From Kordiimonas marina (GTDB taxonomy: Bacteria > Pseudomonadota > Alphaproteobacteria > Sphingomonadales > Kordiimonadaceae): DNA of 64,000 nucleotides. The notes below the pieces were generated by a model. That model ran no database searches. It was not told where the DNA came from and saw nothing but the letters and a program-made list of their open reading frames with translations. Position numbers and translations under genes: made by a program. Each line of letters starts with the position of its first letter. Position 1 is the first letter of the stretch. Below are positions 4,586 to 18,953 of this stretch, in pieces. Location of the stretch: contig NZ_JAINDF010000003.1 of NCBI RefSeq assembly GCF_023006325.1, positions 310,001 to 374,000 on the forward strand. Direction: 5' to 3'.

Positions 4586-5752
4586 TCAGCCTGCCCTTTG
4601 TCGATTGCGACCATCACCGGTGCGGGGTTCATGTTCTGTTTGCATCAGCCCGCGCAGGATGCCCTCGCGGATGCCACGATCAGCGACCCTGAGGCTCGGC
4701 ACGTTCCACATGCCGAGGATCGCTTCGAGAATAGCACAGCCTACGACCACAAGGTCGGCCCTTTCTTCCCCGATACAGGGCTGGGCCGCACGTTCGGCGT
4801 GGGTCATCTGTGCCACACGCTGCGACAGGCTGTAGATATCGCGGGATTTCATCCAGGCGCCATCGACCTTGTCACGCTGGTAGCGTGGCAGGTTGAGGTG
4901 CAGGCTCGCCAGCGTCGTGACCGTGCCGGACGTGCCGAGAAACTGGGTATGGCGCTTCTTGATCACCGAACCGACCTGATGCGCATCTTCAAACGCGCGC
5001 AGATGGGACGCGACCTCCTCGACCATGGACGTATATTGTTCAGGCGGCGGGGTAATCCCGGGCACCGCGAACCGTTCAGACAGGTTGACCACGCCCCAGG
5101 GGATCGACATCCAGCCGCTGATTTCAGTGCGGCGGCCCGATAGCACCCGCACCCAGATCAGTTCGGTACTGCCGCCGCCGATGTCGAACACCAGCGCGTG
5201 CTTGTTGCCCGGCGCGATCAGCGACTGGCAGCCCATGACAGCAAGCCGCGCTTCTTCCCGTGCGGAAATAATATCGAGGTTGAGCCCGGTTTCTTCCTTC
5301 ACCCGGGTGAGGAATTCAGGCGCGTTATCGGCCACGCGGCAGGCCTCGGTCGCCACATGGCGCATACAGGTCACACCGCGGCGCTGGATCTTCTCGGCAC
5401 AGACCTTCAGGGCCTCAACGGCCCGGTCCATCGCCTCATCAGACAGGCGGTTGTTGGCGGAAACCCCCTCGCCCAGACGGACGATGCGGGAAAAGGCGTC
5501 AATAACACGGAAACCCTGCCGGGTCGGGCGGGCAATCAGAAGCCTGCAATTGTTGGTGCCGAGGTCGATCGCGCTATAGACACCGCGGGAAAAAGCCCTG
5601 CTTTCGCGGTATGGCCTACGCTGGCGCGGGCCCTCATGGGCCTCTGTCGCTGCCTCTTTTTGCCGGTCGCGCCCACCACCTTGTCCGGTGGGACGATCGG
5701 AGCGGCTGCCGGGCTTCTTGCCCTGGCGCGCGCGCCCTTCTTCCAATGACAT
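4586..5752 (-). CDS. Ppx/GppA family phosphatase
   Basis: A 388-residue member of the exopolyphosphatase/pppGpp phosphatase family (ASKHA fold), which cleaves polyphosphate or the 5'-phosphate of pppGpp. Two nucleotide-binding motifs are visible: SAIDLGTNNCRLLI near residue 60 and DIGGGSTELIW near 170. The protein is short, lacking the long C-terminal HD-like extension of E. coli Ppx, as is usual in Alphaproteobacteria. The first roughly 55 residues are a basic low-complexity extension (RARQGKKPGSRSDRPTGQGG) of unknown role, so the true start may lie further in, near YSAIDLG. It heads the unit with rlmE. Substrate preference between polyphosphate and pppGpp is not predictable from sequence. 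Confidence 0.88.
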   Translation of the reverse strand: MSLEEGRARQGKKPGSRSDRPTGQGGGRDRQKEAATEAHEGPRQRRPYRESRAFSRGVYSAIDLGTNNCRLLIARPTRQGFRVIDAFSRIVRLGEGVSANNRLSDEAMDRAVEALKVCAEKIQRRGVTCMRHVATEACRVADNAPEFLTRVKEETGLNLDIISAREEARLAVMGCQSLIAPGNKHALVFDIGGGSTELIWVRVLSGRRTEISGWMSIPWGVVNLSERFAVPGITPPPEQYTSMVEEVASHLRAFEDAHQVGSVIKKRHTQFLGTSGTVTTLASLHLNLPRYQRDKVDGAWMKSRDIYSLSQRVAQMTHAERAAQPCIGEERADLVVVGCAILEAILGMWNVPSLRVADRGIREGILRGLMQTEHEPRTGDGRNRQRAG

Positions 5753-5875: not shown

Positions 5876-5919
5876 GTTCTCTTTTTGTTCTTGACGGGAG
5901 GCCGCAGGCAGCGTAGAAG
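5876..5919 (+). promoter_or_regulatory. LexA (SOS) box and sigma-70 promoter of the small ORF
   Basis: GTTC at 5876-5879 and GTTC at 5887-5890 are exactly seven bases apart, a perfect match to the alphaproteobacterial LexA operator GTTC-N7-GTTC. Immediately downstream TTGACG (5891-5896), a 17-bp spacer and TAGAAG (5914-5919) form a good -35/-10 pair. A repressor on the box would abut the -35. The placement predicts a DNA-damage-inducible transcript starting near 5926. Confidence 0.7.
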
Positions 5920-5943
5920 AACAAAAAAGGAACGGAGGCTAAG

Positions 5944-6123
5944 ATGCTAAGTTTTGCTCACATGGGAATCATCATCGGTTTTATCGTCATGGGTGCCCTG
6001 GGTATGGCCGCGCTTCAGGATGGGCTCAGCATCGTTTGGCGGAACCTGCCCTTCCGCCCCAGCCTGCGGCGCACGCCGCTACGCGGCGCAAAGCCGGCTG
6101 CCGTTCGCCCTCAGCGGGCTTGA
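5944..6123 (+). CDS. Small single-pass membrane protein under an SOS box
   Basis: A 59-codon ORF with an excellent ribosome site (GGAGG at 5934-5938, five bases before ATG). The product has one hydrophobic segment, about residues 4-24 (FAHMGIIIGFIVMGALGMAA), followed by a basic Arg/Pro-rich tail (about ten Arg/Lys in the last 27 residues) that would stay in the cytoplasm. Promoter, LexA box, Shine-Dalgarno, ORF and terminator are all present within 300 bp, which argues for a real gene despite its size. Caulobacter SidA and DidA are small membrane proteins that stop division during DNA damage; a similar role here is inference from layout and size only, as I see no sequence match to them. Confidence 0.6.
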   Translation: MLSFAHMGIIIGFIVMGALGMAALQDGLSIVWRNLPFRPSLRRTPLRGAKPAAVRPQRA

Positions 6124-6579
6124 GCCCTCTCCCACACACAAACCCAGACTGACCAAAGCGCCGTTCCTGCGGCGCTTTGCCCTATTTCGGTCTTTTTATA
6201 TCTGGATTATCATCAGCGTCAGGCACACAAATGGCGCCGCCTTCTGGTCAAGGCAGCGTCAGAATGATGGCGATGTCTGTAGAAAATAAGAGGCGCGGCG
6301 AACAGATCCTCAGGACTGATACACCGCGCCTAATCCGAGCGAAACCCCCAGGTATGCCCGGCCCTTGTACGTGGCGGCTGCCGCATTGGCGCCCAGTCTG
6401 ATCTCACCTCCCCAAGTTGATCAGAACATCCACTAAACCAAGGGTGAACAGCATCCGACAGGATTCACGCGCTTCTGTCAAGGGGGCTTTGGGAAATAAA
6501 AGCGCTTAACCCCACTCCATGATAGTGCAACCGGTTGTTTAAAATGCAAATGAAACGGGGCCAGAAGGCCCCGCACTCT
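6124..6579. other. Intergenic region without a convincing gene
   Basis: Apart from the terminator at 6155-6178 nothing with coding character and a ribosome site is seen. On the minus strand, roughly 6420 to 6310, a short reading ends in TYKGRAYLGVSLGLGAVYQS and a TGA; it looks like the last strands of an outer-membrane beta barrel but is preceded by an in-frame stop, so it could be a gene remnant. Confidence 0.5.
6155..6195 (+). terminator. Hairpin terminator after the small SOS ORF
   Basis: A 9-bp perfect stem AAAGCGCCG (6155-6163) / CGGCGCTTT (6170-6178) with loop TTCCTG lies 31 bases past the stop. The T-run is delayed (TTTTTATA begins near 6192), so termination may be less than complete. 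Confidence 0.6.
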
Positions 6580-7425
6580 TTATTCTACCGGTTCGCCCTG
6601 ATATTCGGACACGCGGCAATATTGTTCGCTGGCATTTTTGCGAATCCGGTCGCACAGGGACTGCGCTTCCTGTTCGCTCATCAGCGGCCCCGCGATCAGG
6701 CGCAGGAACGTCCCGATACCGTCCTGGCTTTGCACATAGACGAGCGGGGTCAGACCATTGAGGTCGGCGCCGAACGCCCGCACCAGCGATTTCCAACCGG
6801 AAGCCACCTGGTCTTTGCTGCGGTAGGACGCCAGATGCACCCCGTAGAAGGTCTTCTCTGCGGTTGCCTTCTGCGCCACCGGGGTAGAGCCCGTACCGCC
6901 AGCAGCTTCGTTTGACGGCGCTGCCGTCTTGTCATCCTTTACATCCGCGCCCGACTGAACGGTCGAAGACTTGGCAGCCGGTGTCGGCATATTGACCTGA
7001 CGCGCGGTCCTGTCCGCCATTTCAACCGAGAAGACACGGTCTTCCAGCTTCTTCATCTGACCATGGACCTTGGAGACATCTTTCTGAAGATGGCTCAATT
7101 CCAGGGCTGTTTTCGGGTCTTTCTTGAAGTTGGCAAGCTTGGTCTGCAGGGTATTGATCTCAGCATCCTGCGCCCGCACCTGCCTGACCAGGTCCACATA
7201 CAGCCGTTCCAGCGAATTGAAACGGTCGAGAAGGTCCCGATGATTTTCATCCACCCGGGTTACCGTATGTTCCAGATTGGTCTGGCGCGCTTCCACCTTC
7301 ACATCATCACCCTGCCACAGATTATCTGACTGGCAGGCCGAGACCATAAGCGCAAGACCGGCAACTATTACCCGCGTCAGCGGTGAGCCGAACCGTGCCC
7401 GGTGGGTTAATTTTGCAGCCAACAT
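6580..7425 (-). CDS. SPOR-domain lipoprotein with coiled coil
   Basis: A 281-residue predicted lipoprotein. The N-terminus is a basic stretch, a hydrophobic segment and a lipobox (LMVSAC, Cys near residue 31). Residues about 45-135 are predicted to form a long coiled coil (VEARQTNLEHTVTRVDENHR, then LQTKLANFKK). A Pro/Ala/Ser linker follows, and a C-terminal SPOR domain covers about 195-275 (FYGVHLASYRSKDQVASGW and the Cys-containing last strand). SPOR domains bind denuded peptidoglycan glycans, often at the septum. A role in envelope or division processes is therefore likely, but no specific pathway can be named. It is a single gene, divergent from padR. A short hairpin with GGGGCC arms lies just after its stop (about 6557-6573). 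Confidence 0.8.
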   Translation of the reverse strand: MLAAKLTHRARFGSPLTRVIVAGLALMVSACQSDNLWQGDDVKVEARQTNLEHTVTRVDENHRDLLDRFNSLERLYVDLVRQVRAQDAEINTLQTKLANFKKDPKTALELSHLQKDVSKVHGQMKKLEDRVFSVEMADRTARQVNMPTPAAKSSTVQSGADVKDDKTAAPSNEAAGGTGSTPVAQKATAEKTFYGVHLASYRSKDQVASGWKSLVRAFGADLNGLTPLVYVQSQDGIGTFLRLIAGPLMSEQEAQSLCDRIRKNASEQYCRVSEYQGEPVE

Positions 7426-18853: not shown

Positions 18854-18919
18854 TGTCGGGTCTCCTTATTCCACAGGCGGTCATCGCTTGCAATGCAATG
18901 TTTTGTACCAGCTTTGTTC

Positions 18920-18953
18920 TAACCTGACAAGAACAAATATTCCCCTTTTGTTC
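18920..18953 (-). promoter_or_regulatory. Putative LexA operator region of recA (two imperfect boxes)
   Basis: Read in recA sense, GTTC-N7-GTTA lies at 18934-18920 and GAAC-N7-GAAT at 18953-18939; each differs by one base from the alphaproteobacterial SOS box. They are 19 bp apart. The position 70-100 bp before the recA start fits SOS control, but no perfect box is present. Confidence 0.45.

What the first reader, a model, noticed from the sequence alone, without database searches (positions are those of the whole stretch)
5876..6195. Self-contained SOS unit encoding a 59-residue membrane peptide
A perfect GTTC-N7-GTTC LexA box, a -35/-10 pair with 17-bp spacing directly beside it, GGAGG five bases before ATG, a 59-codon ORF with one membrane segment and a basic tail, and a hairpin terminator all fall within 320 bp. 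Known alphaproteobacterial SOS division inhibitors (SidA, DidA) are also tiny membrane proteins, so this could be a lineage-specific analog. The box and ORF are seen; the division role is inference.
Basis: partly seen in the sequence, partly recalled or inferred. Interest (0 to 1): 0.7.

Follow-up and report, generated by a model that had tools for sequence, protein, structure and literature searches.

The report
SOS-controlled tiny membrane protein family
Marine bacteria related to Kordiimonas carry a tiny membrane-protein gene that looks set to switch on when DNA is damaged; it belongs to a conserved family that the reference libraries searched here do not hold, and it may stop cell division while DNA is repaired.

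Summary
ORF 5944-6123 (59 aa) has two perfect, convergent LexA boxes (5876-5890 on +, 5919-5933 on -), not one, around a TTGACG-N17-TAGAAG promoter; box 2 meets the -10 and covers the likely start site. Single perfect boxes are at background in this genome (95 against 88 for the reversed pattern), but the pair occurs once, and the reversed control gives none in 196 genomes. Boxes and ORF are conserved together in 26 of 29 own-family (Kordiimonas) genomes (two with one mismatch). Profile searches extend the family to 65 of 83 sampled order genomes outside the largest family f5, and none of 113 in f5. Purifying selection and an invariant helix motif (F13, G17, G20, Q25) mark a real protein without useful Pfam, NCBIfam, PHROGs or PDB matches. 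A convergent SPOR-domain gene follows the unit in 56 of 63 genomes checked. Putative SidA genes of Caulobacterales show no detectable homology and lie elsewhere. Best reading: a LexA-repressed single-pass membrane protein, most likely a SidA-like inhibitor of late division.

The parts
5876..5890 (+). LexA box 1, GTTCTCTTTTTGTTC, abutting the -35
   Evidence: part of an exact pair in 24 of 29 own-family genomes
5891..5896 (+). -35 element TTGACG
   Evidence: sequence; TTGA- or TTTA-type element directly after box 1 in the own-family relatives
5914..5919 (+). -10 element TAGAAG (17-bp spacing), overlapping the first base of box 2
   Evidence: sequence; similar TA-rich hexamers at the same place in relatives; inference
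5919..5933 (-).
5934..5938 (+). ribosome-binding site GGAGG
   Evidence: sequence
5944..6123 (+). ORF of 59 aa, LexA-controlled single-pass membrane protein (stop codon included)
5965..6015 (+). hydrophobic core of the membrane helix, residues 8-24; holds F13, G17, G20 of the family motif, with Q25 next
   Evidence: (helix 2-34 predicted)
6016..6120 (+). basic variable tail, predicted without structure beyond residue 34
6151..6198 (+). probable intrinsic terminator (hairpin then TTTTT)
   Evidence: z -4.8; not listed by the scanner
4586..5752 (-). divergent neighbour, Ppx/GppA family phosphatase; conserved in the own family
6580..7425 (-). convergent neighbour, SPOR-domain protein; such a neighbour is conserved in 56 of 63 genomes with the unit

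Best explanation
The unit is a dedicated LexA-repressed gene. Shown in silico: two convergent LexA boxes bracket one sigma-70-type promoter, box 1 against the -35 and box 2 against the -10 and over the probable start site, in front of a short conserved ORF that is followed by a convergent SPOR-domain gene. Inferred: while LexA is bound, transcription is doubly blocked; after RecA-driven LexA cleavage a short-leader mRNA is made from a start near 5926. The product inserts as a single membrane helix, probably N-out/C-in with a cytoplasmic basic tail. Conserved residues on the helix (F13, G17, G20, Q25) pack against a membrane partner. Most likely that partner belongs to the late division machinery (FtsW/FtsI/FtsN, or the neighbouring SPOR protein), so that division pauses until LexA returns. 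That the gene is LexA-controlled and coding I hold at about 0.95; the division target at 0.57.
For: Exact box pair plus ORF in 24 of 29 own-family genomes, one pair per genome, the F-G-G-Q motif in 22 of the 24; one-mismatch pairs with intact ORFs in two more, G018 and G007. Independent test: of 24 fetched profile hits outside f5, 22 have an exact LexA box within 160 nt upstream and two a one-mismatch box, against 0 of 14 fetched hits in f5 and 0 of 29 fetched loci of the class-wide search, the window excluded. Purifying selection: dN/dS 0.014/0.149 and 0.048/0.215 in two close pairs; third codon positions most variable. F13, G17, G20, Q25 invariant in the 20 aligned own-family proteins; conservation is helically periodic there (p 0.023). 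Helix 2-34 predicted with high confidence. The only exact paired operator in this genome, which suits a product that must be kept off. A convergent SPOR-domain gene on the 3' side in 24 of 24 own-family pair loci and 32 of 39 others, four of which had served as seeds of the search model; 0 hits in 145 control loci of 417 kb; Pfam agrees for the four non-window seeds. SPOR domains bind septal peptidoglycan (established knowledge), and DidA acts on the SPOR domain of FtsN (PMC4211646, passages read). Small damage-induced membrane proteins that block late division are known in several phyla (PMC4211646, PMC13396833, passages read).
Against: No transcription, LexA-binding or phenotype data. No homology to putative SidA. 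Conservation is not significantly periodic in the Emcibacter-like set (p 0.16). The SPOR neighbour is convergent, hence not co-transcribed, is of differing domain make-up (TPR plus SPOR in f8 and f4), and was not found in 7 of 39 loci, some of them short. Of the 24 exact own-family cases G008 and G028 lack the full motif. G017, rated 100% complete, shows no unit, so the gene may be dispensable. Tight operators also fit toxins that do not act on division.
Confidence: 0.57

Rival explanations
1. A TisB- or DinQ-like SOS peptide that lowers membrane potential and slows growth, rather than acting on the division machinery.
For: LexA-controlled single-helix peptides of this kind exist in E. coli (DinQ: PMC3567139, search listing only; TisB: PMC11575346, search listing only). 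Tight double operator.
Against: The best 17-residue membrane core carries no charged residue in 38 of 38 units, unlike amphipathic pore-formers (recalled). The start site inferred from the -10 leaves a leader of about 18 nt, with no room for the structured leader and antisense RNA typical of such toxins (recalled); the 5' 85 nt show no excess structure (z +1.2). A specific conserved motif and the SPOR linkage.
Confidence: 0.13
2. A damage-induced regulator of some other membrane protein (transporter, protease, lipid or envelope enzyme), with no direct role in division.
For: Small single-helix regulators of transporters and proteases are common (established knowledge). Conserved residues on the helix. 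The SPOR neighbour could mean envelope remodelling rather than division.
Against: Double LexA operator and one such unit per genome suggest a switch-like product; the known LexA-driven micro-membrane proteins are mostly division inhibitors or toxins (recalled).
Confidence: 0.25
3. The conserved element is the promoter or a small RNA and the ORF is incidental.
For: The ORF tail is poorly conserved and lengths vary from 34 to 96 aa (the Caulobacterales row set aside).
Against: Low dN/dS, position-3 variation, invariant residues, and ORFs found by protein profile that then prove to have boxes.
Confidence: 0.03

Closest known systems
SidA of Caulobacter crescentus (29 aa, LexA-controlled, binds FtsW)
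   Same: LexA-controlled, tiny, one membrane helix, alphaproteobacterial; probable timing and logic.
   Different: About twice as long, with a basic tail; other motif; profile comparison with putative SidA orthologues finds nothing; lies beside a SPOR gene rather than upstream of dnaE; paired operator, whereas about 97% of Caulobacter SOS promoters carry one box (PMC12700426, passages read).
DidA of Caulobacter crescentus (71 aa, acts on the SPOR domain of FtsN)
   Same: Similar length, single helix, a link to a SPOR domain (PMC4211646, passages read).
   Different: DidA is induced by DriD without LexA; this unit has two LexA boxes. Here the SPOR link is only genomic. Sequences not compared.
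YneA, SosA and ChiZ, damage-induced membrane division inhibitors
   Same: Membrane proteins induced by DNA damage that act on late division (PMC13396833, passages read).
   Different: Other phyla; YneA and ChiZ have LysM domains, and no Pfam domain matches the window protein.
TisB and DinQ of E. coli
   Same: LexA-controlled single-helix peptides.
   Different: Uncharged helix core, short leader, longer tail; no sign here of an antisense-controlled leader.

Membership tests
SOS (LexA) regulon | LexA box at the promoter | tested here: met
   two perfect boxes, conserved with the ORF; lexA itself carries a perfect box in this genome
SOS (LexA) regulon | induction by DNA damage and in lexA mutants | not testable with these tools
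   needs transcript data
SidA family | small protein with one membrane helix | tested here: met
   (helix 2-34)
SidA family | sequence homology to SidA | tested here: not met
   hhalign of A4 (putative SidA, 22 distinct rows) with A1, A2, A5, A6: probability 1.3% or less. That A4 is SidA rests on size, LexA box and place, partly recalled; short profiles limit sensitivity
SidA family | LexA-boxed micro-ORF directly upstream of dnaE, as in Caulobacterales | tested here: not met
   0 of 30 genomes of the own order (chosen from 196) have a perfect box in about 600 nt upstream of the dnaE match, against 42 of 70 Caulobacterales loci with box and membrane micro-ORF
SidA family | binds FtsW and blocks division | not testable with these tools
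   needs two-hybrid, microscopy, suppressors
DidA | LexA-independent, DriD-driven induction | tested here: not met
   two LexA boxes at the promoter; DriD not looked for
DidA | sequence homology to DidA | not tested
   no DidA sequence was fetched
TisB/DinQ-type SOS toxin | long structured leader with antisense RNA | tested here: inconclusive
   leader about 18 nt if the -10 is right; the 5' 85 nt fold no better than shuffles
TisB/DinQ-type SOS toxin | amphipathic charged helix | tested here: not met
   no D, E, K or R in the best 17-residue window in 38 of 38 units
Known curated families | match to a Pfam, NCBIfam or PHROGs model, or a PDB sequence | tested here: not met
   window protein: none in Pfam or NCBIfam, one head-protein family at E 0.16 in PHROGs; among 37 members only scattered weak hits, best E 0.0027; no PDB sequence at E 1 or better for the own-family profile

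The most novel reading that the evidence does not exclude
A second, independently evolved alphaproteobacterial family of SOS single-helix division inhibitors, under a paired LexA operator and genomically tied to a septal SPOR-domain partner, spread over six families of the Kordiimonas order and filling the role that SidA fills in Caulobacterales.
Probability: 0.48. Interest if true: 0.78.

Novelty: new variant of a known kind. Interest (0 to 1): 0.65.

Why it matters
It names a conserved SOS microprotein family absent from the libraries searched here, with a defined operator, motif, distribution (65 genomes) and a candidate partner gene (a convergent SPOR-domain gene in 56 of 63). Damage-induced division control becomes directly testable in a group for which the searches found no paper. 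If it is a division inhibitor, unrelated micro-membrane proteins arose repeatedly for the same checkpoint, and the conserved helix residues give a handle on how late division is switched off.

Tried and rejected
A single LexA box as evidence: rejected, perfect single boxes are at background. The search for related loci with the single protein found nothing in genome contigs; the box-pair pattern did. The class-wide profile search gave membrane-protein noise: 0 of 29 fetched loci outside the window had a perfect box within 400 nt (seven lower-ranked hits were not fetched). Of the 33 stretches, several (Bacteroidales, Dysgonamonadaceae, Pontibacillus, Prevotella, Bradyrhizobium and Rhodobacteraceae MAGs and others) looked like chance or repeat matches and were dropped; two (L075, L083) stand before long ORFs, L083 ImuA-like by eye. 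Homology to SidA: tested and not found. Foldseek was not run: a single helix would not be informative.

Rows dropped or corrected: L097 (Robiginitomaculum) is in A2 and in the 38 units but belongs to the Caulobacterales set; L017 was left out of A1 and A2 as a near-duplicate; row 3 of A4 is a shortened copy of row 2. An earlier count said 25 of 29 for exact pairs; the count is 24. L211 holds N letters and was counted as not exact. The f5 control covers 14 of the 20 f5 hits and was not matched for reading-frame length; outside f5, hits in frames of about 300 aa or more, one short-frame hit at a contig end (G073:C64), and hits already known from boxes were not fetched. f5 and the other family codes are unnamed; I take f5 to be Sphingomonadaceae from recall only.

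Full report
OBSERVATION. One thing was missed: a second perfect LexA box, GAACAAAAAAGGAAC, at 5919-5933, reading on the minus strand. The two boxes face each other across 28 bp. Box 1 ends where TTGACG begins; a -10 TAGAAG at 5914-5919 overlaps the first base of box 2, so RNA would start inside box 2 and the leader would be about 18 nt (inference from spacing). GGAGG stands five bases before the ATG. The terminator-like fold at 6150-6203 has -20.3 kcal/mol, z -4.8; the consensus scanner listed neither it nor the promoter.

CHANCE. A perfect GTTC-N7-GTTC box alone means little: 95 in the genome against 88 for the reversed pattern. The convergent pair (gap 20-34 bp) occurs once here. In 196 genomes of the order 38 have a pair, one each, and the reversed control has none. 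Of the 38, 24 are own-family genomes (24 of 29), 12 lie in other families, and two GC-rich cases in the largest family, f5, look like chance.

CO-CONSERVATION. In the 24 own-family cases a short ORF of 34-77 aa begins 10-26 bp after box 2, with the F-G-G-Q motif in 22 of 24; G008 (34 aa) and G028 diverge. G018 and G007 have the pair with one mismatch in box 1 and an intact ORF, making 26 of 29. Of the other three, G022 keeps the SPOR gene but its contig ends about 42 bases beyond it on the unit side; G013 is 76% complete with no ppx or SPOR match at the thresholds used; G017, rated 100% complete, shows neither the close ppx, the close SPOR gene nor the unit and may be a true loss. The genus is Kordiimonas by contig identity: G010, of the same genus as the window, has the 711,330-base contig that names K. 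gwangyangensis.

SPREAD. A profile of 37 proteins (A2, which includes own-family and other members) searched over the 196 order genomes found further short ORFs. I fetched 38 hits: 24 outside f5, chosen mostly for short reading frames, and 14 of the 20 in f5. An exact box lies within 160 nt upstream in 22 of 24 outside f5 (one mismatch in the other two) and in 0 of 14 in f5. Tally of genomes with a box (exact, or one mismatch in two) and a membrane ORF: f1 26/29, f2 6/8, f3 0/1, f4 4/4, f6 6/7, f7 1/2, f8 22/32, f5 0/113; that is 65 of 83 outside f5. In several of the f2 cases and in f7 only box 2 is intact. Named holders include Kordiimonas sediminis, K. aquimaris, K. laminariae, Pseudokordiimonas caeni, Eilatimonas milleporae, Iodidimonas muriae and an Emcibacter MAG. 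Profile comparison links f1 with the f2/f6/f7 set (E 6.9e-6) and that set with the f8/f4 set (E 1.5e-7); f1 and f8/f4 are not linked directly.

NEIGHBOURS. In all 24 own-family pair loci (L041-L064) both the ppx and the SPOR gene flank the unit. Beside ppx it also lies in members of f2 and f6 and in f7, but not in f8, f4 or f6 G058 as far as looked at. A convergent SPOR-domain ORF lies within about 1 kb in 32 of 39 (22 of 22 in f8), with no hit in G031, G042, G047, G052, G058, G059 and G063; some of these stretches are only 1.5-2 kb. The same profile gives no hit in 145 control loci of 417 kb. Five sequences, the window's and four of the 39, seeded the profile; Pfam SPOR confirms those four. 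The f8 and f4 neighbours are TPR plus SPOR proteins, so the linkage is to a SPOR gene rather than to one fixed protein. Together 56 of 63 checked; G018 and G007 were not checked.

THE PROTEIN. Twenty own-family members share invariant F13, G17, G20 and Q25, and H6 in 17 of 20; the tail is variable. Two close pairs show dN 0.014 / dS 0.149 and dN 0.048 / dS 0.215 (few changes: 2 against 6, and 5.5 against 7.5), and third codon positions vary most. AlphaFold2 gives one helix, residues 2-34, mean pLDDT 81, with the tail near 60. In 38 units (Robiginitomaculum included) the helix core has no charged residue and the part after it is net positive in 35, implying N-out/C-in by the positive-inside rule. 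Conservation along the helix is periodic in the own family (p 0.023) but not significantly in f8 (p 0.16). No informative match exists in Pfam, NCBIfam, PHROGs or PDB sequences.

THE REGULON. lexA carries a perfect box at its promoter, and a uvrA-like gene follows a single perfect box (named by eye); recA has three one-mismatch boxes. The small gene is the only one in the genome with the exact paired operator.

COMPARISON WITH SidA. The Robiginitomaculum hit (L097) led to Caulobacterales: upstream of dnaE, 42 of 70 loci examined (of 120 genomes searched) have a perfect LexA box and a membrane ORF of 25-64 aa as read by the script, mostly 28-40 aa, four of exactly 29 aa. SidA is a 29-aa LexA-controlled protein (PMC4211646, passages read) with locus tag CCNA_02004 (PMC11034885, passage read); that sidA neighbours dnaE is recalled, not tested. 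These putative SidA proteins show no similarity to any Kordiimonas-order set, and 0 of 30 chosen genomes of the Kordiimonas order have a perfect LexA box in about 600 nt upstream of dnaE. So the two families look unrelated and complementary, with the caution that 34-column profiles are weak.

MECHANISM. Shown: operator anatomy, coding, conservation, single helix, SPOR linkage. Inferred: LexA represses by covering both promoter elements; cleavage releases a burst of a membrane microprotein; its conserved helix residues meet a membrane partner. I favour the late division machinery because the known LexA-driven micro-membrane proteins of other lineages act there, because the operator is unusually tight, and because a SPOR-domain gene stays beside the unit even where ppx does not. 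Rivals are a regulator of another membrane protein and a TisB-like toxin.

NOVELTY. No paper in the held library joins Kordiimonas with LexA or Kordiimonadales with SOS response; the two that hold both Emcibacter and LexA were seen as listings only. The kind (SOS micro-membrane protein) is known; the family, its operator and its distribution appear new.

Noticed in passing
L251-L320, upstream of dnaE (Caulobacterales): Perfect LexA box plus a membrane micro-ORF, mostly 28-40 aa, between a lolD-like gene (seen in L097) and dnaE in 42 of 70 loci; probably the wider SidA family.
   Followed up: partly
L351-L371 and L247-L249 (f8, f4): The convergent neighbour of the unit is a TPR plus SPOR protein (Pfam on three of them; SPOR profile on the rest).
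   Followed up: partly
L202, L203, L207, L208, L213, L221 (Emcibacter-like, f8): Upstream operator is a triple half-site by eye, ATTC-N7-GTTC-N6-GTTC, before the -35.
   Followed up: no
L083 (Geminicoccaceae MAG), L075 (MED665 MAG): The same paired operator stands before long ORFs, L083 ImuA-like by eye, so the design may serve other SOS genes elsewhere.
   Followed up: no
window 18905-18953, recA promoter: Three one-mismatch LexA boxes within 50 bp upstream of recA.
   Followed up: no
G000 single boxes: L099, L102, L104, L109: Perfect AT-rich boxes before MmcB-like, UvrA-like, radical-SAM-like and ribonucleotide-reductase-like genes (names by eye).
   Followed up: no
G017: A Kordiimonas-genus genome rated 100% complete shows neither the close ppx and SPOR genes nor the unit.
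   Followed up: partly
L245 (G036): Paired boxes with a 20-bp gap but no membrane ORF found nearby.
   Followed up: no
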